A DNA stretch of 64,000 nucleotides, from contig NC_049991.1 in NCBI RefSeq assembly GCF_000003815.2, positions 6,535,254 to 6,599,253 of the forward strand, in the 5' to 3' direction. This document shows positions 34,473 through 60,162 of this stretch, piece by piece. The notes below the pieces were generated by a model that ran no database searches, was not told the origin of the DNA, and was given only the letters and a program-made list of their open reading frames with translations. Within the stretch, counting starts at the first letter, position 1, and each line of letters opens with the position of its first letter. This stretch comes from Branchiostoma floridae. Lineage: Eukaryota > Chordata > Leptocardii > Amphioxiformes > Branchiostomatidae. Both the position numbers and the translations under genes were made by a program.

Positions 34473-34620
34473 GTTTGTTGCCTTACTACACATGAGTGAC
34501 GCTGTTATTGACAGCAGCTCTAGCCACGACGATGGCCTTGAGGCTCGGGTCATCTCCATGGTAACTAAACGTCCTGTCGGTCACTGACATTGTTGACTCA
34601 ATGACGGGCAGCGCACAGGT
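34473..34620 (-). promoter_or_regulatory. Duplicated esterase promoter region (copy at 60163-60300)
   Basis: The sequence upstream of both signal exons is conserved: TCCATGGTAACTAAACGTCC here versus TCCATAGTAACCAATCGTCC there, then TGTCGGTCAC in both. Conservation outside the coding exon fits a shared promoter carried along by the duplication. No TATA box is obvious. Confidence 0.5.
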
Positions 34621-39522: not shown

Positions 39523-42500
39523 TTAAAGTTCATCTTTCTGCGCTGAAGCAATTTTTGGGAAGACCTCGTTCCAAAATTTCATTTTCTCCGACTTGAGCCC
39601 AACGTCAGTGGTCGGCACCACGTCCAGCTTCATGTAGACCGGGTTGTCAGGTGTGTACTGAGGCCAGGTCGGCAGGGAGGGGCTGTCAGTGGGGCCGCCG
39701 GTGGAGTCGGACGGGTCGCTGTAATAGATAATCAAGTTCAGGGACATTTAAAGGAGTCCTAAACTCCAGAAGGGAGTGTTATTTTCCAATACATTATGTA
39801 TCATCAATAAATCAATAATCAGCCGACTATTCGCATAACTTCACTTTTGGTGAAATAAGCAACGTGTGTTTGTACAACAACATGTGACATTCACTAAATC
39901 CATGCAGACCCTTCCAATACGTATTATTTAGACCCTTCCTTCACCATGCATATTTTCGGCATAAATGAGGGGCGATGTTCACACCAAGAAAATGAATTGT
40001 TTACAAAATATCAAAGAACGCATACCGTGACATTATATGCATTTTCAGTTCCTAGGTTTAATATCTATCGTAAAATAACACTCCTTTGAAGTGACTCATG
40101 TTATGAAAAGATGTCACCAGAAGATCCCTACTTCTAGTCTAAAACGTCACTGCTGATCTCTGACCTCTTGACCCGGCCTGCTACATCGACTTGATTTATA
40201 TTACCATGTAATTTTGTACTAAGAAGCTAGCCTACCTATACTATAGCATAAAAGCAATGGACAGTCTAGCCTCGTTTTGATGCCCTGAACCCAGATGACC
40301 ACGGAAAATCCAAAATGGCCGCCACATCTGGCAATGCATTTATTTACGTAGTGTCACAACATGCAAGATACTAAATAGCTACGAAAGGCAATGGTGGACC
40401 AACTGCTGTGGATGAAGCTGTCTGGATTGGTTCGAGCGGGAGTAAGACTTAGTGAAGAAATCTTACCCAGTTCTTGCGAAGTTTGCCCAGTACGCCATCA
40501 TGCTCAAGCTGACGTGCTCGTCTGTCTTAGTGTAGGTTACGTTGGCGGTGCCATGGTCGTCAAAGAACGGCATCCCCATAGTCATGTAGAGATCATCTCC
40601 ATGGTCACACCCCACCCAGTCTGGTCGGTGGGCATTGATAGAGGGTCGGTACTGGTTCTCGTAGAAGAAGACACGAGTGCCGGCGCCTATTGGGGTGTGG
40701 GATAGAAAAATAAACAAGAGTTCGGAGACCTCATACCTTCACGTGTAATGCTTTAGAAATTAAAGAAATGTATTCCACATGTGCATAATCCATGCATGGT
40801 GACGTTTAACATGGAATTTTTCATTGATATTGCAAATGATGACTTTATTTACGTTATTCGTTATGGAAAACATTAACACCGAAATTATAGGAATTCTTAA
40901 GTATTGTGGTGTGTGTTAGTAAGGAAGGTATTAACATGTGTGCATCCATAACCCTACCAAATAAAGAAACAGAATCTTTACGCATAATTTACTGTGTGCT
41001 TAAATATTTTTGTCTTGCATGCAGGATAAGCTAACATCAGATACACGAAAATGATACAAATACATGCATTGCTTGTATGTGAATTACCGTATATAGATGC
41101 AATATACAGGGCTCGAAATACCACCTGCATATGCAGGTTAGTGCAGGTAAATTTGAAGCTGTGCAGGTATTTCCGGTGTCTGCCTGCACCTAACCCGTAC
41201 TGTTTTTTTTTACATAAATGTCCTATGATGTAGGTGTATGTGGATTATTATTAGCAGCATTGAATGTTACCCCTATCAGGTATAAAAAAAAATTTCCGAT
41301 GGTTCCTGAACAATTTTATTATGACCCATACTTAAATTCAGAATGGTGCAGGTAAAATTTGTCTGGTGGAAATAATTTTCAATGTTACCTACACCAGTGC
41401 AGGTATGCAGAAAAATGTATTTTGATATAACGACGCGTGAATGATATTGATCGGCAAATCTCACCTGCATGTTTATCTGCCACCATAACTGTAGGGCTGA
41501 CGAAGAGGAGATCACCATACAGGTGGGAGAACTGGTACTGAATCGCCATTGGGTCGTCAGATTCGGTTGAGTACTCAGCCACAATAGCGTCCACCATTTT
41601 GTCCAGATTTGGATTGTCCTTTGAGAGTAAAAGTGGAAAAACAGCAAAGAAAATAATCATTTGGGTAAGTAGATAGTTTGAATTGTGTAACGTATAAGAA
41701 TGGCAACCACTTTCATGTGTTTATCAGATTTTTGATCAACTGCTTACGTCATAACAATTCCGGAATGTCAGCGCAGTGAATCAGACATCTGATTAAGGTC
41801 AAAGAGATCAGAATGAGTGTTTTCATTGTATTAGAACAAAGCTCAGATTTTGAAATTATGGCATCACAGATGCGTCTTCATTCGAGTGTTCAACGGTGTT
41901 TTTTTATATGATAGCTTTCTTTCTTACTTAAAATACGCAATAATGGTAAACATACTAATTTAACACAGCGTTATAAGCCTTTGTGGACTGTGATTCAAAC
42001 TTTTGGCACGTTATGAAATATACTATAAGATATCAAAAGTGTTCTGTGCTTACCCGGTAAATCATTGACGCGGCTGCCTTCGTTAATCTGACAAAGTCCT
42101 CTTGGGATATCCCAGCTAGAGGGTCCCCTTGGATTGCAAATGGTAGCATCAGCCACCCGAACTCGTGGTTGCTGACTCCCAGAAGATAATCAGCCGTGTT
42201 GACGTCTCCTGCTTGCATCAGGTCCATGGGTTGAGAGGTAAGGAACGTCCCGTCCACCGCTGGTGAGAAATAGAACGGGCCGATCTTGAGTTGTAAGTCT
42301 CTAACTTTGTCCAGAAGCTCCTCTGGTGACTTCTCTTTCAGACAGGCCGTTAGGGTTGCCGTGTCCTCCGTCTCGCATCCGGCTTCTTCCGCAAACATCT
42401 TGGTCAGGGGAAGTGGCTGTGGGTTGACCGGCATGGTTGTCCAGGTACCGCTCTGTGAGATGGCTCTCCGGAACAGACCTTTACTGAGGGGGGACAGGAG

Positions 42501-44113
42501 TTGGTAGGAGACGCTCACGCCGCCGGCTGACTCTCCAAATATGGTGACTTTTTCAGGATCTCCGCCGAAGTTTCGGATGTTGTCCCTCACCCACTCCATG
42601 GCACGGACCTGAAGATGACGAATAGTATGCTGGTGTAAATATAGCACTGGATTAGATATACATTTAACGCTAAAGAGAGCAGTACGTTTCATATCTATGG
42701 TGATGTTGTTTTTAATGAGTCAAGTGGCACTGACCTGATCCAGGAATCCGTAGTTTCCTGGAATGTTTTCGTCCCCCGTACTGAGGAAACCCAGCACACC
42801 GAGACGGTAGTTGATGGAGACCACCACGACGCCTTGATGAGCAGCAAAAGCCTCGTATCCTAACATGGAACCCATGCCCATGGAGAGCCCGCCTCCATGA
42901 ATCCAGAAAAGGACCTGGAAATAGTTAAAGGGCTGTTGTGATACTGCAATTGGCAACATGTACCTTCCGTGGATATCTTTCTTGAATATTTTGCTATGCA
43001 TCTATGATTTGTTATTGTACTATTTATTGATTTGTTATTGAACTGTTAGATAGCTTCATTCATGTTACTTCCTACATTGCCTTATTGTTGATAATCTAAT
43101 TGTTGTTACTCATTTTTCATTTGTTATCATTTGTTTCCCATTTCAATTATTTCATTCGAATTGTGTTCAGTAGTTATTAGGAGGAGGGCTCCTATAAGCC
43201 GTTTTTGGCTTCTTCCTCTCTCCCGCACGGTTTTTATGTATCATTTATCTTTACGTTGTGTATTTCCTTTTTGTATGTGCAAATAAATAAAATCAAATTA
43301 AATCAAATCAAATCTTTCTAAACAATAAAAATTGATCTTTCTGAACATAGATAAATGAACGAATTGAATAGAGCTTTTCAACAGAAGTAAAATGACAAAA
43401 ATCATTCTAATTGTAGTTTCTCAAAATAGATAAGGAAGGGCGTCGTCTTCAGCTATAGGACCCATGTACGCAGACACGCTATTTTCCGCATGTGCGACGC
43501 CACCTTTCTCTCAAACGAGACGGGGGACGGTACAAGCTTCCAACGACCTTTGACCCAGTGCTGACGTCACATGTGCGGAAAAATCACGTGTCTATATGTA
43601 TACATACAGTACTCTAGTCAGATAACTGAAGAAGACCTAGAGATTCGGCGTAATTTTTTTAGTAAAATTTCTTGAGCTGGAGAACAGCATAATTTTAATC
43701 TCATTATGCTATTCAACTATATAAGGAGGCTTGATGGCTAGTTTATGTTTAATTTTTTTTCTTAAAAAATCTCACCGGCAAGGCGGCGTCTGCCGCTACA
43801 GTCGGAGTAAAGACAGCGAGTGTCAGACAGTCCTCGCTCATGGTCATGTTCTGTCCAAGTTCGTAAGGGAAGTCCATCTCTTTCATGAATGTAAGATTTT
43901 GCGGACAGTAAACACCTGGCTCCACGGCCTCCCTGACCCCCTCCCACGGGAGGGCAGGCTGGGGCGGGCGGTACCGGAGGTCTCCAACAGGGGGCGCTGC
44001 GTACGGGATAGCGAGGTACGTGTAGATCGGCTTGTCTGGGAGGTCCTTGGCGTGCGAAATTGTCCCCTTCACCTGTCCAGTCTCTGTCGATACGACTGGA
44101 CACTCCGCCTTAC
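39523..44113 (-). CDS. Carboxylesterase module III (third domain, KDEL end)
   Basis: Exons 43776-44113, 42735-42914, 42054-42608, 41465-41618, 40467-40686 and 39523-39718. It begins at a phase-1 acceptor ([15 protein letters not shown]), with no start codon or signal peptide of its own. Oxyanion segment WIHGGGL, nucleophile GESAGG, acid SNHEFGW, histidine GCDHGDD. Cysteine pairs (YCPQN/EDCLT and AGCETE/TACLKEK) match the family's disulfides. The end AQKDEL is an ER-retrieval signal. It is closest to module II, with identical exon lengths and shared flanks. Confidence 0.9.
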
Positions 44114-47100
44114 CTGAGAACAAAGTACAAATTTAATAGATTTACTGTAAACTTCGAGCAGTCAAGGAAAACTGGTGCCATGTATTGTTATTTTCCAATG
44201 TGCAAATACAATATACGCTGATTCCGTATGGTCAAAGGCATCTGTCCTAGAAACTAAAAATTAATAATCTATCCTTTGTATCATGATTATGACAGCACAA
44301 CATCTATTCGAAAAACGTCATGAACATGGGGTGCCTAATTATTTACCTGCGGCAGCCAAGTCTGGGATGACTTCGTTCCAAAGTTTTATTTTCTCCGGCT
44401 TGAACCCAACGTCAGTTGTCGGCACCAAGTCCAGCTTCATGTAGACCGGGTTGTCAGGTGTGTACTGAGGCCAGGTCGGCAGGGAGGGACTGTCAGTGGG
44501 ACCGCCCGTAGAGTCGGAGGGATCGCTGTAACGCATCGAATAGAATTCAGTGGAAACCCAAAGTAGCAAGATCCTAAACGATAGAGGGTATGTAAAGATG
44601 TCAGCCGAACAAATAGACGAGTAAACAAAAGTTGCAAAGTTTGAACTTTGTTCCGCACAACAACAACAACCCCCATTTAAAAAAAAATTCAGTAGATCTG
44701 ACCGACCTTCACCAATGAATGATTTACTGCCCTGACGTTCCAGAAGTCGGAAGTGTGATGACGTAAGAGGCGAATCAAAAGTGGCGGGACGCCTCAGTCT
44801 TCCGAAACGTCAGCGAAGTGAATCAGACATCTGATGAAGTTCGACTTAATCGACTGAAAATTCATAGTGAGTGTTTTCGTTCTGTTGGAAGCTCAAACTG
44901 TGTAACTATGGGTTCTATCAACACAGATGGTCCCTGCTTACCCGGTTCTTGCGAAGTTTGCCCAGTACGCCATCATCTTGAGAGAGACGTCTTCGTCTTC
45001 TTTAGTGTAGTTCTGTGGTTGTACAGTTCTAGTTGCCTCGAGGAACGGGAACCCCCAAACCATATACAGGTCGTCTCCGTGCTGGCATCCCACCCAGTCG
45101 GGTATGTCCGGGTGGATGGAGGGTCGATACTGGTTCTCGTAGAAGAAAACCCGGGCACCGGCATCTGTTGAAGATGATTCAAGAATCAGTGTTAATGTCA
45201 ATACCTTGTTGTTGTGTTGCTACAAACCTCAGGTAACCATCTGAGTAATGAGGCTGTTTATGTGCACTCGAGGCACCTCCTCGCATTTGCTCCGTTTTGA
45301 CAAAAAAGGTAGCTCGGACAAATGTCATAATTTTATGTATCGACATATATAATAGTTACGTAAGTGGCAGTAAAACTGCGATTTCCAATGCTATAATTCC
45401 ATCAAGAGAAACGGCATTAACTTGATGCGAAAGTGACTTTCGAAACCAAAAGAACTGTTTAACCGTGTAGCGGAACGGCAGAGTGTTCGACTCAGAACCA
45501 AATGGTCCTGGGTTCGAATCCTGTCATGTCGCCGATCTTGTGCCATTTGGAAAGACACTTTGTATGACCTTAAGCTTCCTTTCTGCACCCAGGTGTAAAA
45601 TTGGAAATCTGACGGTAGGGAAAGGTAAAACGCTGTGGAAGTAGAAGGATGGGCTCTGCTTTCAAATACCGTGCCCAAGACGTATTTAACAGCTAACAGC
45701 TAACCCCCCACCCCCCACAACAGCCTCAAGATGGCTTTAAGACTACCTTTAACTTCTGTCTGTCATTTTTATGTGTCATTGATAAGATAAGTTGCTAACT
45801 TGAGTGCCACACATTTGGCCCTGTTTGTCTTTTATAGGGCCTTCACATTGAAACCGAGTCAGCAGGAATCAAGCAGAACCAGCCGGAATGAAGTATTTGC
45901 AAAATTCGTGCCACGTTCGGGGCCATTCGGGTGGGAATTCCAAATGGATCTTATATCCCATTCACACGAGAAGGGATGAGCCAAAAAGCCGTCAGAATGA
46001 AAGTTCTTTTCTATTCTTGTAAATTCGTAGTGTATCCTAGAAATTCTCACTGCATTCGATGCACTCCATCGAACGAGATAAGAATGTTTCGAATAATGTT
46101 GGAATGCGTAGAATGCGGTCACAGTTCAGTTAGAATAGTTAGAATAGACTTAGAATCCACTTTGAATGCCATTCGATATTTCTCCACTTCGAATGCACCT
46201 CGACAGCTTTAACATGTCAAAAACTTTCGGGCCAGCCAAAAGAACGGGCACAAATAGCTGGAATGCTGTGAGAATTTCTGGAATACACTACGAGTTACCA
46301 GGAATTGCCAGGACTAGTAAAGAATTTTCATTCTGACGGCATTCCGGGTCATTCTTGCTCTCGTGTGAAAGGGGGCTTAAGGAAATAAATAAAAAATGCC
46401 ATCAGCTGACAATGTAGCGGAGCAGAAAGGGAAATGCAACACGAAAGTGAGGCATCCATATGCTACTCACCGGCGTGGCTGTCTGCGACAAGAACTGTAG
46501 GAGCTGCGAACCAGGCATCCCCTGTGGAAAGTGTGAACTGGTACAGGATTGACAGTGGGTCGTCGGGATCAGTCGGTTTGTACTCCGCGACGACAGTATC
46601 CGCCATCTTGTCCAAGTTTGGATTGCCCTGAGTGTGATATAAAAAATGAGCATATATGAGAGAAATCACCCTCCACCCTCCACCTGCACCTGTTTTATTT
46701 ATTATTTTCGTAATATATTTAATGTAATATTTTCTTGTGGAAGTAGATAAAACAAACAAAGCTGTTGCAATACAGATATTTGCTGTTCACTAATAGAAAT
46801 TAGTAGATGCTACCGGAAACGTCTGAAAATCTCTCCAGATTCTTGAGTATTTGTATTTGTGTATCTTATTACCTGGATGTCTAACTTTCATCACAGAATG
46901 AGGGTGGCCGTTTTCTGAGATATAGAGTCAGTGCCAAGAACAAGGCAGACTGTATTGTATTTTGATTTTTGTACCCGTTTTGGTAATGGTACCATCTCCT
47001 TTCATAAGCATTTATGATCCAGACTTATAGTCATGCAGAATAAACAGACACTAGGTTTTTGCTAGTTCGTTTTTGAAGACACAACACCAGATTCACTGCT

Positions 47101-50100
47101 TGCTTTAGACACCTCCTCGAACACGGGACCCCCATATGCATTTTTCGGTCAAAATTCAAAACTGCATCTCTACTTCAAACACAGAAATAGAGCACACTGA
47201 TTTCAACGTACAATCTCAACAAGTTCTTTCGCACACAGGTTACTTCAAATACCAATACCAAATATTAAACCTATTCAGACCGGGATTTTTTTATCATCAC
47301 TGGACGGGGGGGTGGGGGTTTGATTTTATTTTGAGGCCCGCTCTTTCTGACTCCTGTAACTCTAAAATAAATTATCATATGGCCACAAAATTTTCAGAGA
47401 ATGATGTTAATATAATATCTAACAAATGAAAGAAATTTGACGTAACGATGGCGTAGTATAACGTAACTATGACGTCATCAATTTGCCTTTATTGTCTGGA
47501 ACCGTGAAAAGGGGGTATTCCCAGAAAACTTTGACGTACGCTACAAAAATGTGCTGATAGCAGAATAATTATGTTTGTTACGACGTGTGTTGCCAATAGC
47601 AATATCAATGACGTTAAAGTGACGTCATAAAATGATCTAATGCATATCTAAGATACTTGTTAGGCTCTGCCATCTTATATCCAACACCTTGAATTTTCAC
47701 AAATACATTTTTGGCGACAAATAATCGGAAAAAACAACGGTGATAGACTAAAAACGTTCATTTAAACGTTTTTTGATGCAAAAATACCAGGTATTTACAA
47801 CTTATTAGGGATAATAAGCTAGTTATTCGTCATCTGGTCATACGGTCCGCCATCTTGGATTTTGGCCCATGGCGTCATCACATTAGCATAATTTAGCGAT
47901 TTTCGTCCAAAATGCACGTCACCAAACGGTTGCCATGGCAACAAGAAAAATGGAAATTTTTTCAAACATTTGAAATTGTTGACATAAAATTTTAGGAAAA
48001 CTCACCAAGTTTGGTGGCTCTAGCGAAAGCCGTTCTGGCGTCATGCGACATGAAAGTTGGCGCGTGCCTCAAACCACCCCTCCCCCCGTCTGAATAGGGT
48101 TAAAATTGTTGCGTACTTACCTGGTGGACAAATGACATTACTGTCTTGATGACTTTAAGAAATTCCTCTTGAGACATGCCATCATGAGGGTCCCCTTCAA
48201 GAAAGCTAGAGAGCCCCATCCAGCCACCCTCGTGGTTGTTGAATCCAAGAAGATAGTCTGCTGTGTTGATTTCTCCATTCTTCATCAGATCCGAGGGGTC
48301 AGTCGTCAGAAATGTTCCATCCACCACCGGTACGAGATACGCCATTGGCCCTAAGGCCTGGAATGCATCAAGAAGCTCTTCAGGTGACTTCTCTTTCAGA
48401 CAGGCCGTTAGGCTTGCCGTGTCCTCCGTCTCGCAACCGGCACTTTCTGCAATGATTTTAGTGACTGCGAGTGGCTGGGGGTTGACTTGGAAAGTTTTCC
48501 AGGTACCGCTCTGTGAGATGGCTCTCTGGAACAGACCTTTACTGAGGGGCGACAGGAGTTGATAGGAAACGCTAATGGCGCCTGCCGACTCTCCAAATAA
48601 GGTGACTCTTTCTGGGTCTCCACCGAAGTTTCGGATGTTCTCCTTCACCCATTCCATGGCACGGACCTGTATTGATAGAATTCAGTTCATGTCTTATACA
48701 AAAGTGACGAAATAGTTCTAAAATACAATAGGAAAATAATGTTGCGTTGACTAGATCCAGGAATCCAAAGTTTCCTGGAATTTGCTCCTCTCCCGTACTG
48801 AGGAAACCCAGCACACCGAGAAGAAATTAACCAATGTTTGGTACGTAGATTCACCGTAAAGTTGGCAATATCGCCCTCAATTCAATGGAAATGTCGTTAT
48901 CTATACCATTTTCAAAGGAAAACCCACTGACCTGATCCAGGAATCCATAGTTTCCTGGCATGTTTTCGTCCCCCGTACTGAGGAAACCCAGCACACCGAG
49001 ACGATAGTTGAAGGAGACCACCACGACGTCTTGGTGAGCAGCAAGACCCTCAAATCCGGGAGGACCACCATAGAAAACCATTAGACCTCCACCGTGGATC
49101 CACAAAAGAACCTGCGAAGAATAAAACATGTTCAATGCATCAAAGGAAAGTTACTGTTTTCTTCGTATGCAACTGAAAGTATACCATTGAAAGTAAAAGG
49201 ACCCTTGGATTCGTTAAGCGCAACTTAAATGACTGCCCCAAAAAAGTCAAACAAAAAGCCTACACTAGCTTAGTCAGACCCCATCTTGAATATGTCAGTG
49301 CGGCATGGGACCCTTATCAGAAAGACCACATTTTCAAACTCGAAGCGTTCCAAAAAAGAGCGGCTAGATTTGCTTCAAATGTCCCGAACTGTCCAAATTC
49401 TCAGTCATGCGCCACTAAACTAGTCTCGGACCTGGGTTGGGATACACTCAAAAATAGAGGAACAGCCAACAGACTTACCATCCTCCAGAAATCTAGACAA
49501 AATCTCCTAGCCCTACCGGTGGATCACTACTTGCAAAGGCAATCTAGACATAACCACCCAAACTCATACAAACCCATTAAGACTAATAAAGACTGTCTCA
49601 AACATTCATATTTCCCAAGAACCACTAACGATTGGAATACTCTGCCATACTCAACCACCCTTCAAGCTAATCCCGTTTAGTTTAAGGCAGAGGTGCTGCA
49701 ACACCTGAGGAACGGTCAATAAACAGCAGCACTACACCCTGGATGGTTTGCCCCAACAAATATAAGGGGTGTTATTCAGTACGAGAACAATAATCATAAT
49801 GAAGCATTGCATGGTTAACACTCATGGAAATCATGGAATATTTAGATTATTTTCATAAGAAAGATTCTATCATGTAAGACAAAAAACCTTGATGTTTGGA
49901 ACTGCATTTGTAAGGAGCGACACCTATGCTGCAGTTATTCAGTGACTAACCAACCTTCTACTCAGGAAAGGCCTTTTAAACATTTCATGTGATGCTTTCC
50001 ATTAAAATACACAAAAGAAGGTCCTGCTGATCAAAGATTTGACTAGCACAAGCTAGTATAGATGATAGGAAGTTGGTGTATGAAGTAGTATCAGAACTTA

Positions 50101-53100
50101 CCGGTAAATAAGCATCCGGAGCTACAGTCGGAGTGTAGACGTTGATTGTCAGACAATCCTCGCTCATGGTCATGTCTTCTCCAAACGCAATAGGTGCCTC
50201 AAAGTGCTTAAGTGCGGATATGTTTTGTGGACAGTAAGAACCATACTCCACGGCCTCCCTGACCCCCTCCCATGGGAGGGCAGGCTGGGGCGGGCGGTAC
50301 CGGAGGTCTCCAACAGGGGGCGCTGCGTACGGGATGCCCAGGAAAGTGTAGATCGGTTTGTCGGGAAGGTCGGTTGTGTGTGTGATTGTTCCATGGACTT
50401 GTCCGGTCGCCGTGGACACAACTGGACCGTCACCCGTACCGGCTGTAGCGTGTAGTAGGAGTAATGGGAAAGTAGCGTGATTACAGCTTATGTAATTCAA
50501 TATAAAAATGGCATTCTATGACCTTCAACTTATGCCAGTTTGAGAAGGCAAATGTCCAAGTCAAAGATGGCGGACAGCAACGTGTAATGGTAAGAGTGTT
50601 TCCATGACGCACAGACATCACTATGGAGACAGACAAAGCTATTTGTATTCTTGGGAATGGTATGGTCGTTCAAACATATTTGGGTTTCATAGGTACATTG
50701 TAGGGTATAAAAACTAATCTTCGACCAGCTTTCGTCACTGACGAAAGTTTCTGGACTATTCGAAACGTCTGACTGTTTCTGAAATGATATCCAGTTGCTT
50801 GAATCAATGTTTTTTTTTTGGCGTATTGTTTCTTTGGTCGGGGGTTGTTACAAAACTTATATTTTTTTTTACCTGCGGCAGCCAAATCAGGAATGATCTC
50901 GTTCCAAAGTTTCGCCTTTTCTGGCTTGAGCCCAACGTCAGTGGTCGGCACCACGTCCAGCTTCATGTAGACCGGGTTGTCAGGTGTGTACTGAGGCCAG
51001 GTCGGCAGGGAGGGGCTGTCAGTGGGACCGCCGGTGGAGTCGGACGGGTCCCTAAATGGCAAAATTAAGAGGAACCTCAGAGTACAGTACCAAGAACTTT
51101 AAAGAAAGCGCGAAATGAAAAGATGTAACCAAAACATGAAGTCTAAAAAGACACCGCTTTCTTCTATTTATGTCTGTAACTGCATTTATACGTTAGTTTA
51201 GATGTTCAGCACGCATAGCCAGGGCTACCCAACTAGCCCTGCTGACAAAAACAAATGCAATAAAAATGGAATTTGACATAGGCAGAATAGTCAATAACAA
51301 TTTTTGTGGTTGTTGGTTGTTGGCGTCCATCTGTCTCAGCAGACAATGATAGGCAGACTGTTACTCGCTGTCTGCCTGATCTGCACATGGCTTTTTATGG
51401 TGAAGGAGGTGTGTGCACTTCCTTCTAAGGATGTGTGCACTTCCTTCTCCACCCTCTCCTCTACTGGCGCAATCATTCCCACAGGGACAAAAATAACAGT
51501 ATTCTAAGTAATAAAAACTATAGTATGCGTATTTATTGTAGTACTAGGAGGGGCTAAATTTTACCCGGTTCGTGCGAAGTTTGCCCAGTACGCCATCAAA
51601 GTGAGACTAAATTCCTCGTCTTCCTTCGTGTATTTTTGGGAGACTTCTTCGAGAAACGGGAGCCCCCAGATCATGAAGAGGTCGTCGGCGTGGTCACACC
51701 CCACCCAGTCGGGTCTGTCCGGGTGGATGGAAGGTCGGTATTGCATCTCGTAGAGGAAGACACGAGTACCGGCATCTGTAAAGTAAAATTCAAGAACGTT
51801 GATAGAATTTGCAGTCATGATATATCGAAGACGAGGGCAATGAGGCAAAGAGACAAAACTTATTTCTAAAATCAGCTCCGTTTCCCCCAAACACAGATTT
51901 TCACAACATAAGACCAAATAATAAATATAACTAGTGTTATGCACGGAAAGATGTAGCAATTTTGAGTAGAATGATCCCAATTTACCTTAAGAGATACATG
52001 ATAAAAACACTATAATGAAAATATTTGATGGAAATGCAGCCATCCTCTTATTGGTCGCTTTCCTATTTGTCAGGCTATCATTGGTTGAACTGCTAATAAT
52101 TGTACTTAGAATCACTAGATGTATCTTATTCAACTTGACCTGTACTTAACTTGTTAGGAAGCAAGAACGTACAATAAAGGTCTTCATTCATTTATTATAA
52201 TGGACAGTCTTCTGTTTGCCTCATTGACCTCGTTTTAGATCTGCTATTGGCGCGCGCGTGAGAAAGGTGTATGGAGACGCTAGATCGAATCGATAATCTT
52301 GTCCTTAGAAAATAACACTGGTCTTCGCGAGCATAGGTTTCTACGCTATTGATGATACGTTTTAGCAGATACATGCCCGACGCTATTGGCAAATACATCG
52401 TAGCATTCATACAAAAATATAGATAAAATGATATACCTCATTTGTATTTATTGCATGCCCGGTAAACCAAATTATAGTGTAATTATAACACACCAAGTTT
52501 GTACTGAAGAGTTATTGTTGTACTGAAAAATACAAGCTGCATATCTGACAGGTTTGAAAGATAAAATCGAACTTGAGCACAAAAAATGCAATGCATTGTA
52601 GTACTACAAAAGTAAGGTATCCATATGCTACTTACCGACATGTTTTTCTGCAACAAGCATGGTAGGACCTAGAAACATGGAATCTCCATTCATCCGTGTA
52701 AACTGGTACAGGATCGACATCGGGTCATCTGGTGTGGTCGGATGCTGATACTCAGCGACGATGGTGTCCACAATTTTGTCCACGTTTGGATTACCCTGAG
52801 TGTGATACCAAATGCAAAAATAAACACAATATCACATTCTAGAGTTGTCATAAACAGGTAGTTCAATTAAGTTTCGTCATAATACAACAGAAAGCTATCA
52901 TCGCATATCTGAATATCTTTTAGCCTTCATCAGATTCGAATGACCAGTCACGTAAAGTGCGTGACCTCAGTCTAGTGTGGCAGGAAGTTCGTAACGCCCC
53001 CCGTCTCTACTAGACATCTACCTTACGAAAGAAGTCTAAATATGGCTTTTTGTTGTGTAGAACTTTGTTCATTGATTAATAATTGGTTCACCGGACACTG

Positions 53101-56100
53101 GATGAATAGCCAATGTTGTAAGGGTCACACAGTCTTGAATGATCCCCCAAAACAGTTATTCTGACGGTAGAATTTCAATGAATGGCATACTCACGTGGTA
53201 AACCATCGATGCTCCTTTCCTCACTAGTTTGACAAATTCCTCTTGGGACATGCCAGCACGAGGGTCCCCTTCCCTGAAACTGGGCAGTGCCATCCACCCC
53301 ATCTCGTGGTTGTTGATTCCAAGAAGATAGTCTGCTGTGTTGATTTCTCCTTTCTGCATTAGCTCCATGGGGTCAGTCGCCAGAAATGTGCCTTCCACCG
53401 CCGGGAGAGGGAACATTATACCTAGGGATTCGAATGACTCCATAAGTTCCTGGGGTGACTTCTCTTTCAGACAGGCCGTCAGGGTTGCCGTGTCCTCCGT
53501 CTCGCATCCGACCTTTTCTGCTAACATTTTGGTGATTCCGAGTGGCTGGGGGTTGACGGGAAATGTTTTCCAGGTACCGCTCTGTGAGATGGCTCTCTGG
53601 AACAGACCTTTACTGAGGGGTGACAGGAGTTGGTAGGAGACACTGATACCGCCTGCTGACTCTCCAAATATGGTGACTCTTTCTGGGTCTCCACCGAAGT
53701 TTCGGATGTTCTCCTTCACCCATTCCATGGCGCGGACCTGTGTTGTAAAAGTATCATTCTTGTCAGCACGCAATAACGGCAAAATAGTATATATAAAGAT
53801 ATCATTCAGAACATAATGAATTTCTTAGTTAATAATGGCATGATCAGTGTCGTTGCTCCCACTGACTTGATCCAGGAATCTGTATCCGTAGTTTCCTGGA
53901 ATTTTCTCATCTACCGTGCTCAAGAAACCCAGCACACCGAGAATAATTTGACAAATCATCAAAATATTTGGTACGTACATAGCTCAAGCGATGGTTGTTT
54001 CAATATAAGACCTTTAATATTGCTCTCAATTCAATAACAATTGAACTGAGAGCAATATTCAGCACAGGAAAACCCACTGACCTGATCCAAGAATCCATAG
54101 TTTCCTGGCATGTTCTCGTCCCCCGTACTGAGGAAACCCAGCACACCGAGACGGTAGTTGAAGGAGACCACCACGACGTCTTGGTGAGCAGCAAGGGCCT
54201 CCCATCCGGGAGGTGACCCCATCCCTATCATTAAGGCTCCGCCATGAATCCAAAGCAAAACCTGAAAAAAAAAGTCCACAGAAATGAATCGAATTTCATT
54301 GACGGACTTCATCTTGAAGTGAAATTGTTTGACATGACATTAAACAATAACGTAGAGATAAATTCCGCCCAGATTCATATATGCTTATACTTCTGTTTAA
54401 GACGGTTTAAGGACGTTTCGTTACATTGGTAGTTTGCTGCAGTCCTTTCGCTACATAGTGAAAATCGTTTAGCTACGTGTACATGGTAGAGGTCGTTTCG
54501 AATCTACTTGCAAACATCGTTCCAATTGCAAGTTGCCTTGCTTTTAAACAAAACAACTGTTTACTTAGCCTCCATAGCAGGCTCTCTGGCGCCTTCTTTG
54601 CTCGTTATACACTTTTTGGCCATTTATTTTTGTACTGGGTCACTGATTGCCCAAAGGGGCCAGTAATCAGAGACGGCGAACAATCAGCGACCCATGGCCA
54701 GTAGAAAACGAAATGGCCAAAAAAGGACATTATGAGCACAAAAAGGCACCAGAGAGCCTATTATGGAGGCCAGGAAAACACCGCATCTTTAAGTAATGGA
54801 AATTCAGAGTATAACAATGTAAGCGTACGGTCAATATCATTATTTCATTGTCGAGACGTGACAGAAATTACCGGTAAAGCGGCATCCGCTGCTACTGTCG
54901 GGGTGAAGACGTTGACTGTGAGACAGTCCTCGCTCATGGTCATGTTCTCTCCAAACTCAATTGGAAAGTCATGCTCCTGCTCATTGAAAGAAGTAAGATT
55001 TTGCGGACAGTAAGGACCATATTCCAAGGCCTCCCTGACACCCTCCCAAGGGAGGGCAGGCTGGGGCGGGCGGTACCGGAGGTCTCCAACAGGTGGCGCT
55101 GCGTACGGGATGCCCAGGAAAGTGTAGATCGGTTTGTCGGGAAGGTCAGTTGTGTGTGTGATCGTTCCACGGACTTGTCCGGTCACCGTGGACGCAACTG
55201 GACCAGCATCCTGACCGGCTGAAGCGCCTAGTAGGGATAGATTTCAAACAGTTAGAACAAGAAACAGGGGACTGGGTACCCTCGTCATTTTTTCTGTAAA
55301 ATATTTGACGGATCGTTTTGAACATGTATAACACAAAATCCATGTCAATTTCATAAACAACACATGCTCAACCCCTACATGCTACCCCGGCTTTCTGTCG
55401 TAAACAATGGTAATATTAATGTTTCTGCATGTCTGCGGACTAATTTGGACCAGGGTCAATTCAGCCTGCATGAACAAATTTGGACCAGGGCCAGCTAGGA
55501 ACAGAGACCAACACAAACAGACCCGAGACAATAACCAACGCTAGCCTGTTGAGTTTAACTACAACTTTCATGTCGTATAGTTTTTTTATCAATGACCAAG
55601 AGCTCTGATAAAGGGTAATTTGCAGACTAGCTGTATACATTTTTCAAAAACGTGTTTGATGACAGTTGATAGAACTGTAATAGCATTTGACAGTAAGGTA
55701 TATGATTTGAAATTTGATTCTTCAGATAATGACTGCTACTTTCCTTTACTTTCTAATAGGATTACATACATTACTGGACATGGGTTATACTGCAGCAGTG
55801 TAGTGTCCCCTACACATACACTAATAGCGACAGAATAATCAGCACGTTGATTGTGGTCGCTTTAACAGGAAGAGGAAGAGGAATAATGTCCAAGTAGAAG
55901 TGAAGGCGTGTTTGGTCTCAATGTTGTACGCCATTTTTTGCGGTAAATGAGGGTCTGCATGGGGGGTCCTGACAACGATTTACGCTAAATTCAGGATGGC
56001 TGACTACGCTTTACGTTAAATACACGAAGGTTACCAACGCTTTACGAATCATCCTACTACGAATTACGTAGAATAAGGTACTGTAAATGCAAAAATGTTC

Positions 56101-58688
56101 GCGGTGGATTAATGTTCGCAGCTTTCGCGCTGATCACTTCACCGCGAACATTTTTCTATTATGGTATTAGACTGCAGTCTACTAGTATTGTGTTACCGCG
56201 AACTTAAAACCACCGCGAAAGGTCTTTATTTCCGCTTCCGCGAAATTAAATCCCGCGAACTTAAATGCATTTACAGTAGCTTCCTTACGAATTACGGGGA
56301 ATTAAAAATTTTTAAAGGCCTACCTACGCCTTGCGGATTCAAGAATGCAGACCCTCGTATATAGTTCAGTAAATGTACTTATTTCATCCTCCGCATTGTG
56401 CAAGAGGAAGGGAAAGGGAGAAAAGGAAAAAGACGCTGAACACTAGCCGCAAAAAGCGGTAGACGCATAACATACATCTGCTTGGAGAGAACGCCTCGCG
56501 ACCTTTGCTCTCCGTGCGTGACCTTTGCTAATCGTGGCCTTTGCTCACCGGGACCTTTGCTCACCGTGACCTTTGCTCACCGTGACCTTTGCTCACCGTG
56601 ACCTTTGCTCATCATGGCCTTTGCTCACCGTGACTTTTGCTCACCGTGACCTTTGCTCACCATGGCCTTTGCTCAACATGACCTTTGCTCACCGTGACTT
56701 TTGCTCACCGTGACCTTTGCTCACCGTGACCTTTGCTCACCGTGACCTTTGCTCATCATGGCCTTTGCTCACCGTGACCTGTGCTCACCGTGACCTTTGC
56801 TCACCGTGACCTTTGCTCACCGTGACTTTTGCTCACCGTGACCTTTGCTCACCGTGGCCTTTGCTCAACATGACCTTTGCTCACCGTGACTTTTGCTCAC
56901 CGTGACCTTTGCTCACCGTGACTTTGCTCACCGTGACCTTTGCTCATCATGGCCTTTGCTCACCGTGACTTTTGCTCACCGTGACCTTTGCTCAACATGA
57001 CCTTTGCTCAACATGACCTTTGCTCACCGTGACCTTTGCTCACCGTGACCTTTGCTAAACGTTTGTCTGTCCGTGACGCCTGCGCATATGCTCACGAGAG
57101 AGAGCTCAACAATAAATAACTTTTTGAACCATTCAAAATCATTTCTTGATGGAATTTCATGTGAAATCTTGTTAGTTTTGAAGTGTCTGCGGTAGGAAAT
57201 CCTATACCTGTAGAATCAGTTTTAAAAAAGACTTATGTCCAACTGTGGTTTTTTGCACGCGCGTGAGATAGTGGAATCATCAAAATGAAGTAGTTTAATG
57301 CCTATGGGAGCAATCCAAGGGCTCTGAGGTTTTTTTTTTACTCAATGGCCACCACGTAACAAGGCCTGAAGGCCACTCAAGGTTACGGGTTACATGATTG
57401 TAACTGTAACAGCAACTCTTCGCCCTAGGTCAGAAACATCATGATTGAGACCAGCCCAATTGCTCACTATGACTGAGGACTAACTGACCCAATAGGCGAA
57501 GCAGGGGTTACCAAGGCTGCTCGGGAGATTCCCTACCCCTATTTAAGTGGGTGGGGGTGTGGTGATAGCGTCTATTTTTAGGCTAGCCGTACAGAATTTG
57601 TTGCCAATGTATTTGGTGACAGGTGATACAACAGGCTACTTTTTTTAGGGTAAAATTGTTTTGTTTGAAGTTTTGATTCCTGACATAGTGACAGCCTTTT
57701 TTCTTCCTCTTTCCCGCGGCCGTAGGATGACATGCATTAACTGGGAAACGTTGTAACTTTGCTCTCGGTGATTTTTGCTCGTGTCCTTACATGACATTCT
57801 CAATGTAGGCTCCAAGCAGATGTAAAGAGCCCAGCTCCTTGTGTAACGGGTGTCTTTATAACATTTAGCATGTCTTCCTGGATGCAAGGGTTTTTAAAGA
57901 GGGCCGGGGTGTGTTGGATTGAGAACATCCCCCATCGTTTACTACCATTTACACCCACAACACCCCACCATACATACACAAACACAATCATAAAGGCGTA
58001 CACCACTCGATACTGACATCTGCTTGGAGATCTAGGGTCATCTAGCACATAACATTCCTAGGTGAACGGGTCATTGAAAGTACGTTGATCCCTAACCCAC
58101 TAGCACAGGCATTGTACGTGTGCATGGCGGTGGTGTTAAGATGGTGGTACAGAATGTAACTTTGGATGTCTGCTTCGGTAAAATTGACGTTTACACCGTA
58201 CATAGACCTAAGTGCTTATTTGTCTGTAATCACAGATTCCAAAATTTCAACGTTATGAATGAAAATATGATCACGAAAGTCAGAATCCAGTCAACATTGG
58301 ACAAAACGCTGCATGTGCATGTAGTTGAAACTCAGTATGTGAAACCTGGTTTGCCAAAGGCGTGTTTATACACGGGTTCGCTTAAAAGGCTGGGCTGTCT
58401 ACCAGGCCAGGCTACCTGGCCTGTCTACCTGGCCTGGCTATCACGTCAGGCTACTCAGATCCCCCCATTCATAGCCCCATCATATGGCATTCAGCTGAAT
58501 GACAGGCATAGTAATTGCTAATCTCCCGAGTCCCGACACTGCAAGTGACCGGAGGTTGGCCTGTCCACCACTGGCTGGGCCCTTCAGGAATGTGTCTGGG
58601 GGCCTTCCTTGCAGCGTTAGGAACACAAGTACCAGTACTGACTGTTTGTGTATGTTTGTGTGTGTGTAAATGTGTGTGTGTACATGTA

Positions 58689-58741
<53 letters not shown>

Positions 58742-60162
58742 ATGGGCTTGCCAGCAACAGAAATTATTGAATATCTATCTTCTAGAACAGAAACCATCTC
58801 AGCTCGTGCAACAAGAAGGAAGAGCATAAATCACTGTAAAGCTAAAGTTAATGTACTGACCAGGGGGGGGGGGTATAATTACATGTACCTCCTTGTTCTC
58901 TATGCTAGTATGTCATGTTGACATACACAATATCGGTAGTCACATAGCCTTTTTGAGGCTGTGGATTGTTATCCAATGTACAATTTTTTGTGTCCAGGAC
59001 AGAGCCCAATCCTCTCCTTCCACTGCCAATAATCTCTCCAACCCCTTTGTACAATTTGGAGTGGGGAAAAGTACTGTACAGCACAGATTTTGTGTCAAAG
59101 GATTTGAACCCAGGACCTCTGTTTTCTAGGTCTAAACCCTAAAGCATTTACTCAACACAGTACTCAGGTACAGTACTTGAATGTGTTCCTGACATGCTGC
59201 AAGGAAGGCCTACCAGACACATTCCCGAAGGGTCCAGCCAGTGGTGGACAGGCTAACCTCAGGTCACTTGCAGGGTTAAAGATTAGCAATTACTATGCCT
59301 GTCAATCAGCTATTTTGGCTGAATGCCATATGATGGGGCTATGAATGGGGGGATCTGAGTAGCCTGACGTGATAGCCAGGCCAGGTAGACAGGCCAGGTA
59401 GCCTGGCCTGGTAGACAGCCCAGCCTTTTAAGCGAACCCTATGTTTATAAACCGTTAACCTCATAATCGCACAACAGTGGCGGCCGGTTCACGCCACGGA
59501 GGTCATATTACGTCAAATTACGTGGCCGAACAATGCCCCGCATTCATGAGGTAACCTTGTCCAAAATAACTCTTACACATCAGCGCTCTTGCCAATGCGT
59601 GCAGTGACCCGTAGCGAGTTAACGTGTTTTCAACTTTGTTTTTGTGCATTGCAAGTAGCATCCCGCCCCCTCCCACTCTAGTACAACAGAGCTCGAAAAA
59701 GTGCCCGCATATGCACTAAGTAAGGCATCAGAAATACACCTAATCAGCTGTACACCTAATTTTTGACGGTGAGTGCACCAGTAGGGTTAGATTTGGTGCA
59801 CGTTTTCTCCAGGGTCAAGTAGAATTTTTACCATTGTCATTAATAAGAGCGTATGAAGGAAAGCTTACAGATATAGAGTACATGCGTAATAAAACAAAAA
59901 CAACATTCATTCATTCTTTCATTCATTCATTCACAATTACGTATTCAATATTTTGATCGGCTGATTTAAAAATCAAGCACTCAATGTCAGAGCCACACTA
60001 GCAACATATTAAAGACGGCTATCATGAACATATTTCGGGTGCATAGCTTCCCTATTTTTACACAGTGCTATACTATAAATGCCTATACCCCACCCCGACC
60101 ACAAACTTACCGGAGTAACAGAGGAACAGTGTGAAGATCACAGCGAACACCCGAGCTGCCAT
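39523..60162 (-). CDS. Predicted triple-domain carboxylesterase polyprotein (modules V-IV-III), signal peptide to KDEL
   Basis: Nineteen exons join in one frame (4950 nt, 1649 aa): signal exon 60111-60162, then six exons each for module V (residues about 18-560), module IV (561-1102) and module III (1103-1649). The signal exon encodes [17 protein letters not shown] and ends in phase 1. Only this exon provides a start, and I see no signal exon in the 430-bp and 233-bp gaps between modules. The last exons of V and IV end GCCGCAG at a phase-1 GT donor, exactly fitting the phase-1 acceptors of IV and III. Only III ends in KDEL. All three modules keep the esterase triad; the serines are near residues 223, 761 and 1302. 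Expected role: hydrolysis of esters in the ER lumen or secretory route, with three active sites per chain. Alternative: three transcripts, with V and IV stopping in the intron (IV gives AAAGK then stop). Exons and phases are seen; the fusion is inferred. Confidence 0.7.
41100..41415. repeat. Insert rich in GCAGGT in a module III intron
   Basis: Starts with GGGCTCGAAATACCACCTGC and ends near CCAGTGCAGG. The opening GGGCTCGAAA also appears at about 12147, and variants at 34041 and 59690, so it is probably an interspersed repeat. It has no coding capacity. Confidence 0.4.
43090..43320 (+). mobile_element. LINE 3' UTR with (AAATC)n tail
   Basis: A GGAGGAGGGCTCCTATAAGCC block is followed by AT-rich sequence, then AAATAAATAAAATC repeats. 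This is typical of a non-LTR retrotransposon 3' end. It sits in an intron of module III, antisense to the gene. Confidence 0.5.
44347..50442 (-). CDS. Carboxylesterase module IV (second domain)
   Basis: Exons 50102-50442, 48932-49111, 48121-48666, 46471-46627, 44942-45164 and 44347-44525. It starts at a phase-1 acceptor ([11 protein letters not shown] when joined to module V) and ends at a phase-1 donor after PDLAA. If that intron were retained, translation would add Gly-Lys and stop at once. HGGGL, GESAGA, NNHEGGW and GCQHGDD supply the oxyanion hole and triad. Introns hold a LINE, a piggyBac-like element, a SINE and a truncated duplicate of exon 3. Confidence 0.9.
45465..45712 (+). repeat. 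tRNA-derived SINE
   Basis: Box A-like GTAGCGGAACGGCAGAGTG and box B GGTTCGAATCC lie at tRNA spacing, followed by a body with GATCTTGTGCC, GACACTTTGT and GCACCCAGG. The body is shared with fragments at 26.3 kb and 61.4 kb. It lies in the intron between exons 6 and 5 of module IV. Confidence 0.65.
45834..46380. mobile_element. MITE-like insert with degenerate terminal repeats
   Basis: The left end GGGCCTTCACATTG resembles the inverse of the right end CGTGTGAAAGGGGGC. The interior is rich in GAAT-type words and repeats CATTCACACGAGAAGG. No coding capacity. Confidence 0.45.
47269..48099. mobile_element. Non-autonomous piggyBac-like element, 831 bp, flanked by TTAA
   Basis: The terminal inverted repeats read ACCTATTCAGACCGGG on the left and, inverted, CCCTATTCAGACGGGG on the right. 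TTAA sits immediately outside both ends (47265-47268 and 48100-48103), as expected for piggyBac. No transposase frame. It ends only about 20 bases from the exon 4 donor of module IV. Confidence 0.72.
48757..48822 (-). pseudogene. Truncated duplicate of esterase exon 3 (module IV intron)
   Basis: Encodes [20 protein letters not shown] then LDLV, the second half of exon 3, and lacks the oxyanion-hole half. The same truncation point occurs in the relic inside module V. Confidence 0.8.
49199..49680 (+). mobile_element. Non-LTR retrotransposon fragment: C-terminal part of reverse transcriptase
   Basis: The frame starting at 49200 is open without an ATG to a stop at about 49680. It carries LINE hallmarks: [37 protein letters not shown] and [15 protein letters not shown]. 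It is inserted in an intron of module IV, antisense to the esterase. Confidence 0.85.
49890..49970. mobile_element. Partial copy of the 7.0-kb fold-back family
   Basis: GTAAGGAGCGACACCTATGC then TGCAGT corresponds to one arm of the element at 7022-7293. Confidence 0.45.
50873..55227 (-). CDS. Carboxylesterase module V (first domain)
   Basis: Exons 54872-55227, 54082-54261, 53195-53737, 52636-52795, 51565-51775 and 50873-51051. The first exon's phase-1 acceptor fits the signal exon at 60111-60162, giving [17 protein letters not shown]. An alternative acceptor nine bases in (55218) is also in frame. HGGAL, GESAGG, NNHEMGW and GCDHADD provide the active site. It ends at a phase-1 donor after PDLAA and lacks KDEL. 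Past the donor the frame stays open for some 60 lysine-rich intron codons. Confidence 0.9.
51304..51500 (+). repeat. Interspersed repeat, copy of 13815-13935
   Basis: Shares TTGTTGG, CCATCTGTCTC, GACAATGATAGGCAGACTGT and GGTGAAGGAGGTGTG, then an internal duplication GTGTGCACTTCCTTCT. Confidence 0.55.
53866..53943 (-). pseudogene. Truncated duplicate of esterase exon 3 (module V intron)
   Basis: Encodes LGVLGFLST, then DEKIPGNYG, with a 6-bp insertion before FLDQV. It is truncated at the same point as the relic in module IV, so the relic predates the V/IV duplication. Confidence 0.8.
54569..54769. mobile_element. Short MITE, about 200 bp
   Basis: CCTCCATAGCAGGCTCTCTG on the left is mirrored by CAGAGAGCCTATTATGGAGG on the right, and the arms extend through GGCCATTT and AAATGGCC. 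Confidence 0.8.
55949..56356. mobile_element. Nested MITEs: one element inserted in another
   Basis: The outer ends are GAGGGTCTGCAT and ATGCAGACCCTC. Inside, 56079-56278 is a second element with TACTGTAAATGCA ends and CGCGGTGG/CCACCGCG-type arms. A half-copy of the inner type is visible near 15667 (TACTGTAAATGCAAA). Lies in intron 1 of the triple-esterase gene. Confidence 0.7.
56505..57060 (+). repeat. 16-bp minisatellite, about 35 units (TGACCTTTGCTCACCG)
   Basis: Units differ at a few positions (TGGCC, TGACTT, ATCA, AACA endings) and are almost all 16 bases. On the - strand, the sense strand of the surrounding esterase gene, about 20 units read AAAGGTCA exactly. The array lies in intron 1 of that gene, about 1.3 kb upstream of exon 2. 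Confidence 0.95.
57811..58032. mobile_element. Short element with CTCCAAGCAGATGT ends
   Basis: CTCCAAGCAGATGT at 57811 is mirrored by ACATCTGCTTGGAG ending at about 58031. Single ends of the same type appear at 15919, 24239 and 56475. Confidence 0.5.
58658..58738. repeat. (GT)n microsatellite
   Basis: A pure GT run covers 58694-58737, preceded by degenerate GT/GTAT sequence. It is inside the hAT-like element. Confidence 0.95.
59010..59150 (-). repeat. tRNA-like SINE fragment
   Basis: On the - strand, TGAGTAAATGCTTTAGGG (box A-like) is followed by GGTCCTGGGTTCAAATCC (box B-like). Lies in the loop of the hAT-like element. Confidence 0.4.

What the first reader, a model, noticed from the sequence alone, without database searches (positions are those of the whole stretch)
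39523..60162. One gene may encode three complete carboxylesterase domains in a row
Seen: modules V, IV and III each have six esterase exons with intact catalytic Ser, Glu and His. Only one signal exon serves all three, and it is in front of V. V and IV end at GCAG/GT donors in phase 1. IV and III begin at phase-1 acceptors only 430 and 233 bases away. The 19 exons sum to 4950 bases, an exact 1650 codons with no internal stop. Known: type-B esterases are normally single-domain proteins of about 550 aa. Inference: a 1649-aa secretory-pathway enzyme with three active sites. I am not aware of a described animal example.
Basis: partly seen in the sequence, partly recalled or inferred. Interest (0 to 1): 0.92.

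Follow-up and report, generated by a model that had tools for sequence, protein, structure and literature searches.

The report
Three-in-one amphioxus carboxylesterase gene
A lancelet (amphioxus) gene appears to join three complete carboxylesterase enzymes into one protein kept in the endoplasmic reticulum, and two other places in the same genome look like two-enzyme versions, so fusing neighbouring esterase genes may have happened more than once.

Summary
On the minus strand, one signal exon (60162-60111) is followed by 18 esterase exons (55218-39523) that splice without a stop into 4941 nt. Pfam finds three COesterase domains, each with Ser, Glu and His. V and IV end at CCGCAG|GTAAA phase-1 donors; only III ends KDEL-stop. 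Introns of 430 and 233 nt join the modules, without a usable signal exon.

I had no transcripts, so I tested by comparison. Of 53 last-exon (E6) matches in the genome, 25 end xxEL and just three carry this donor: V, IV and one on contig C5. The C5 module leads, after 748 nt without a signal exon, into a module ending KDEL: a two-domain relative. V and its C5 relative differ at dS 0.26, so the donor has lasted. On C7, in another subfamily, a last exon has both a stop-bearing tail and a phase-1 donor, 542 nt before a module without signal exon. dN/dS is below 0.42 in every pair computed.

Best reading: an ER-retained tandem CES with three active sites; a new variant of a known kind. RNA proof is missing.

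The parts
60111..60162 (-). signal exon, [17 protein letters not shown], phase-1 donor
   Evidence: its surroundings are 74% identical to 34373-34604 in front of module II
54872..55218 (-). module V E1 (alternative acceptor gives 55227)
54082..54261 (-). module V E2, WIHGGA
53195..53737 (-). module V E3, catalytic Ser (GESAG) and Glu (NNHE)
52636..52795 (-). module V E4
51565..51775 (-). module V E5, catalytic His (GCDH)
50873..51051 (-). module V E6, ends ..PDLAAA, donor CCGCAG|gtaaaa phase 1
   Evidence: same donor in C5A
50443..50872 (-). inter-module intron V-IV (430 nt), no usable signal exon
50102..50442 (-). module IV E1, phase-1 acceptor
48932..49111 (-). module IV E2
48121..48666 (-). 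module IV E3, catalytic Ser and Glu
46471..46627 (-). module IV E4
44942..45164 (-). module IV E5, catalytic His
44347..44525 (-). module IV E6, donor CCGCAG|gtaaat phase 1; read unspliced it stops at once (..AAAGK*)
44114..44346 (-). inter-module intron IV-III (233 nt), no usable signal exon
43776..44113 (-). module III E1, phase-1 acceptor
42735..42914 (-). module III E2
42054..42608 (-). module III E3, catalytic Ser and Glu
41465..41618 (-). module III E4
40467..40686 (-). module III E5, catalytic His
39523..39718 (-). module III E6, ends AQKDEL-stop (ER retention signal)

Best explanation
V, IV and III form one transcription unit. A single promoter and signal exon lead into 18 module exons. 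The last exons of V and IV have no stop or KDEL end of the usual kind; instead they carry a phase-1 splice donor that joins the next module's phase-1 first exon. The product is a single chain of about 1646 aa that enters the ER once (signal peptide at the front), is kept there once (KDEL at the end) and carries three complete type-B carboxylesterase domains, each hydrolysing esters on its own Ser-His-Glu triad. Shown: exons, phases, open frame, triads, dN/dS well below 1, and a two-domain relative with the same donor. Inferred: that splicing joins the modules in RNA, that the protein is made, and that all three sites work. A minority of shorter products (second rival) is compatible with this.
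For: One open 4941-nt CDS over 19 exons. Three Pfam COesterase stretches, 1520.8 bits. Donors CCGCAG|GTAAA in phase 1 (scores 7.5 and 9.0) meet phase-1 acceptors. No usable signal exon in the two gaps. Of 53 E6-like exons, 25 end xxEL and 3 (V, IV, C5A) carry this donor. C5A is followed by C5B, which has no signal exon in the 748-nt gap and ends KDEL. V and C5A are sisters (91/90, below the starred level; the V, C5A, IV, VI group 97/99) and differ at dS 0.26. dN/dS is 0.23-0.41 in 21 pairs of seven modules, 0.27-0.28 among V, IV and III, and 0.28-0.37 in 15 pairs with C5A or C5B. E6 exons with a phase-1 donor scoring 7 or more (V, IV, C5A, C7X) have a same-strand E1 within 1 kb in 4 of 4 cases; the other E6 exons whose downstream flank I hold, 0 of 16 (Fisher p 2e-4). 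On C7, heads X and Z have signal exons 0.5-0.6 kb upstream of E1 and the middle module Y has none in its gap.
Against: No RNA, EST or protein evidence. An ATTAAA lies in the IV-III gap. IV read without splicing stops two codons past the donor, so a shorter V-IV product is possible. Weak signal-like exons exist in V's introns (52596, 52542, 53980) and could in principle start IV. The signal exon is 4.9 kb from V E1. The donor score comes from a consensus table written from memory. The grouping behind the Fisher test was made after seeing the data, and the flanks of C5A and C7X were fetched because of their donors. VI, sister to IV, ends in KDEL, so the donor's history needs a loss, a gain or gene conversion.
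Confidence: 0.82

Rival explanations
1. Three separate genes: IV and III have their own 5' exons that the scan missed (for example inside V's introns), or start at an unusual codon, and V and IV end by polyadenylation in the gap.
For: The 12 sister modules read, and III, II and I, end in their own stop. The signal scan is imperfect: a candidate (donor 5 or more, hydrophobicity 1.9 or more) was seen upstream of 13 of 18 head modules, those of I, II and c6c being weak and II's homologous exon carrying a stop. Weak candidates sit in V's introns. ATTAAA in the IV-III gap.
Against: Gaps of 430 and 233 nt hold no ATG exon with a phase-1 GT above -1.0. V and IV have neither an xxEL end nor a hydrophobic tail, while 45 of the 53 E6 exons have one or the other (25 xxEL by script; 20 hydrophobic by eye). 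The same donor is kept at C5.
Confidence: 0.09
2. Both forms exist: one pre-mRNA gives the full triple and also shorter V or V-IV products by intron retention and internal polyadenylation, so that secreted (no KDEL) and ER-kept forms are made. This overlaps with the best explanation.
For: IV E6 is followed in frame by a stop (..AAAGK*), and ATTAAA lies in the gap. On C7, module X has both a stop-bearing tail and a phase-1 donor.
Against: V unspliced reads through 67 further codons that resemble no E6 end seen. No AATAAA or ATTAAA in the V-IV gap.
Confidence: 0.3
3. The array is a misassembly or a decaying set of pseudogenes.
For: Module I next door has a 100-N gap, and II's homologous signal exon carries a stop.
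Against: No N in 39523-60162. All 18 module exons are open with intact triads. dN/dS among V, IV and III is 0.27-0.28. The search showed no second full copy of the junction region. The C5 locus repeats the design.
Confidence: 0.04

Closest known systems
Mammalian carboxylesterases CES1 and CES2 (best solved-structure match: mouse Ces2e, 9g73)
   Same: Type-B fold, Ser-Glu-His triad, four cysteines aligned with those of Ces2e (disulfide pairing recalled), HGGA oxyanion loop in V as in Ces2e; signal peptide and ER-retention end as in microsomal CES (recalled)
   Different: The CES chains listed are single domains of 523-567 residues; this has three domains on one chain with one signal and one KDEL
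C5 two-domain relative in the same genome (G000:C5, 1893174 to 1874686, minus)
   Same: Same E6 donor, same phase, no signal exon in the inner gap, KDEL only at the end
   Different: Two domains, a different signal exon (MAVVRLHMF.. type), an extra intron in E3 of the second module, an N run cutting the first module's E1
Read-through or conjoined genes (PMC3041646, PMC2953495: listing and start of abstract seen)
   Same: Adjacent same-strand genes joined by splicing
   Different: Here the upstream last exon itself lacks its usual end and carries the donor, so the join looks built in rather than occasional
Polymeric globins of brine shrimp (recalled, no call)
   Same: Tandem domains of one protein family in one chain
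   Different: Not esterases

Membership tests
Type-B carboxylesterase (Pfam PF00135) | Profile match over the domain | tested here: met
   Three stretches, 1520.8 bits against a cut-off of 27
Type-B carboxylesterase (Pfam PF00135) | Ser-Glu-His triad | tested here: met
   V, IV and III all intact
Type-B carboxylesterase (Pfam PF00135) | One catalytic domain per chain of about 550 aa (usual, not obligatory) | tested here: not met
   Joined model has three domains, 1646 aa
Microsomal CES (CES1/CES2-like) | Signal peptide and C-terminal xxEL | tested here: met
   Signal exon at 60162, KDEL at 39523, each once per triple; targeting itself not tested
Microsomal CES (CES1/CES2-like) | Esterase activity | not testable with these tools
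   No assay
Fused tandem gene | One transcript across modules | not testable with these tools
   No RNA data; splice sites, phases and a C5 relative only
Fused tandem gene | No own signal exon for inner modules | tested here: met
   None in the gap in front of 4 of 4 inner modules (IV, III, C5B, C7Y), against a candidate upstream of 13 of 18 heads. The comparison is uneven: gaps of 233-748 nt against 0.4-11.5 kb searched for heads, and weak candidates lie further up inside V's introns

The most novel reading that the evidence does not exclude
Lancelets have made tandem-fused esterases more than once by the same simple step: a donor arising in the last coding exon upstream of a phase-1 first exon. 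The cases would be a triple on C13 and a double on C5 (one origin), and a separate double in an anchor-tailed subfamily on C7. The triple may act as a single-chain counterpart of the trimers that mammalian CES1 forms (recalled), holding three differently tuned active sites together in the ER lumen.
Probability: 0.4. Interest if true: 0.7.

Novelty: new variant of a known kind. Interest (0 to 1): 0.6.

Why it matters
An animal carboxylesterase with three active sites on one chain would be unusual in a heavily studied detoxification and drug-metabolism family. The locus also shows gene fusion at recognisable stages: single genes with KDEL, doubles and a triple sit in one genome, so the order of stop loss, donor gain and signal-exon loss can be studied directly. 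It gives a clean case for testing whether covalent linkage of enzymes changes activity or stability.

Tried and rejected
Tried: a signal exon for IV or III (none usable in the gaps; weak candidates in V's introns); the unspliced junction as a DNA query against the whole genome, where a spliced retrocopy would show as adjacent pieces (none seen among 45 listed matches, only the best 40 candidates of 1056 being scored); a poly(A) hexamer test (uninformative). Module I was first read in a wrong frame in E1 and corrected before the dN/dS run.

Papers: ten searches, eight about esterases (two of them returned nothing) and two about gene fusion and lancelet genomes. No listed title or start of abstract describes a multi-domain animal carboxylesterase. 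Lists were cut (20 of 21; 8 of 115; 15 of 33; 10 of 15). I opened no paper, so a mention in a body text may have been missed (PMC4720363 and PMC13209539 hold the words 'carboxylesterase domains'). The library is open-licence PMC only. RefSeq gene models of amphioxus were not available; a predicted model of this protein may already exist. I did not predict a structure: the tool takes proteins that the DNA gives letter for letter, which a spliced protein is not.

Limits: donor scores use consensus frequencies recalled from memory, and the hydrophobicity cut-offs are mine and differ slightly. The tree holds 13 modules, those I assembled. The 53 E6 matches are a lower bound by the tool's own remark. 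Per-exon identities differ, so gene conversion is likely.

Full report
WHERE. The window is G000:C13:6535254-6599253 of a 513,431,437-base genome in 431 contigs. Size and content fit Branchiostoma floridae (recalled; no call names it). The window holds five minus-strand esterase modules, V to I from right to left, with the same six-exon layout. Two more, VI and VII, lie on the plus strand just beyond the right end.

THE OBSERVATION. I re-derived the exon borders and joined them. The signal exon plus 18 exons give 4941 nt, 1646 aa and no internal stop. V and IV end at CCGCAG|GTAAA donors in phase 1, and IV and III start at phase-1 acceptors after 430 and 233 nt. III ends in KDEL. Pfam calls three COesterase stretches. 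All three triads are intact.

TESTS WITHOUT RNA. (a) Ends. A search with an E6 peptide gave 53 E6-like exons in the genome, a lower bound. I read the end of each: 5 in the window, 12, 36, recounted. By script 25 end in xxEL. By eye, 20 more have a hydrophobic, anchor-like tail and 5 another stop-bearing end (c6b, c6g, c6h, L054, L061). The last 3 (V, IV, C5A) are the only ones with CCGCAG|GTAAA. Read unspliced, those three end in a 67-codon run, AAAGK* and AAAGKIKTLSNISFRK*, which look like neither tail type. One further exon, on C7, has a phase-1 donor scoring above 7 (7.9) besides a tail.

(b) A relative. The C5 exon is part of a second fused design. There is a signal exon at 1893174, then C5A (its E1 is cut by an N run), the same donor, 748 nt, C5B E1 in phase 1, and E6 with KDEL. 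No signal-like exon lies between C5A and C5B at the thresholds used. V and C5A are sisters in the tree (91/90, not among the starred forks), next to IV and VI (97/99 for the four), with dS 0.26 and dN/dS 0.29. So the donor has been kept while silent sites changed.

(c) A control and a lead. On C7, three minus-strand modules follow each other. X and Z have signal exons 0.5 to 0.6 kb upstream of E1. Y has none with a phase-1 donor in its gap (one phase-0 candidate at 1406990); instead X's last exon carries a phase-1 donor (7.9) 542 nt before Y's phase-1 acceptor. X also has a stop-bearing tail, so both outcomes may occur there. By eye X and Y keep Ser, Glu and His (X has GQSGG).

(d) Spacing. 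E6 exons with a phase-1 donor scoring 7 or more are followed by a same-strand E1 within 1 kb in 4 of 4 cases; the other E6 exons whose downstream flank I hold, in 0 of 16 (Fisher p 2e-4). I set the groups after seeing the data and fetched two of the four flanks because of the donor. Flanks were not held for the remaining 33.

(e) Selection. dN/dS is 0.23 to 0.41 in 21 pairs of seven modules, 0.27 to 0.28 among V, IV and III, and highest (0.41) for III and II. All three domains of the triple look constrained. A low ratio is an average: VII has lost the catalytic Glu and its ratios are 0.29 to 0.39.

RESULTS AGAINST. There is no transcript evidence. A signal candidate (donor 5 or more, hydrophobicity 1.9 or more) was seen upstream of 13 of 18 head modules; those of I, II and c6c are weak, II's homologous exon carries a stop, and c4b, c6b, c6f, c6g and c6h gave none. 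So absence in a gap is not proof, and the gaps are much shorter than the stretches searched for heads. At relaxed thresholds weak candidates appear in V's introns, 52596 and 52542 in intron 4 and 53980 in intron 2. ATTAAA occurs once in the IV-III gap. VI, the sister of IV, ends in KDEL, so the donor's history includes a loss, a gain or a conversion. Per-exon identities differ enough (IV and VI: 94% in E3, 86% in E6; IV and V: 83% and 89%) to suggest exchange between modules.

HOW IT MOST LIKELY WORKS. One pre-mRNA, three enzyme units in a row, one way into the ER and one KDEL to stay there. The step that made it seems small: the last coding exon of a single gene lost its stop and KDEL end and gained a donor, and the next module's first exon was already in phase 1 (inferred). 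Because V, IV and C5A share the donor, a fused ancestor before the C13-C5 split is the simplest account, with a later module addition on C13 (inferred). What the enzyme acts on is unknown; by family it should cleave esters and amides of dietary or foreign compounds and lipids (recalled).

KNOWN OR NOT. The domains are ordinary CES-like enzymes, closest among solved chains to mouse Ces2e. The joining is the news. Eight esterase searches of open-licence PMC listed no described multi-domain animal carboxylesterase in a title or abstract start (call numbers and cut lists in Tried and rejected); subscription papers, body texts and RefSeq models were not seen.

The recount bore out the 53, 25 and 3.

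Noticed in passing
window 34373-34604, minus: Promoter and signal exon in front of module II, 74% identical to V's, has an in-frame stop in the signal peptide; II may be inactive in this haplotype or start elsewhere
   Followed up: partly
G000:C6 9754574-9752068 (c6g) and 9763251-9760166 (c6h); loci L024, L025: Two esterase modules end in SKL and SKM, peroxisome-type tripeptides (recalled), and have an in-frame Met (MVVPIV) at the start of E1, with no signal candidate in the 6 kb scanned: possible retargeting from ER to peroxisome
   Followed up: no
G000:C7 1412778-1402193, minus; L067, L068, L051, L059: Possible independent two-domain fusion in an anchor-tailed esterase subfamily
   Followed up: partly
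G000:C13 6616761-6621214, plus; L014, L015: Module VII lacks the catalytic Glu (NNHV) and has FGDSAG; may be non-catalytic
   Followed up: no
window 63340, plus: A strong signal exon (MAVVRLHMFCLVVAIWVCVSSC) on the plus strand, close in sequence to the C5 gene's; may belong to module VI 11.5 kb downstream. A partial look-alike lies at C13:6602123
   Followed up: partly
window 20512-20611: 100-N assembly gap inside module I E3; module I also has WIFGG in place of WIHGG
   Followed up: no
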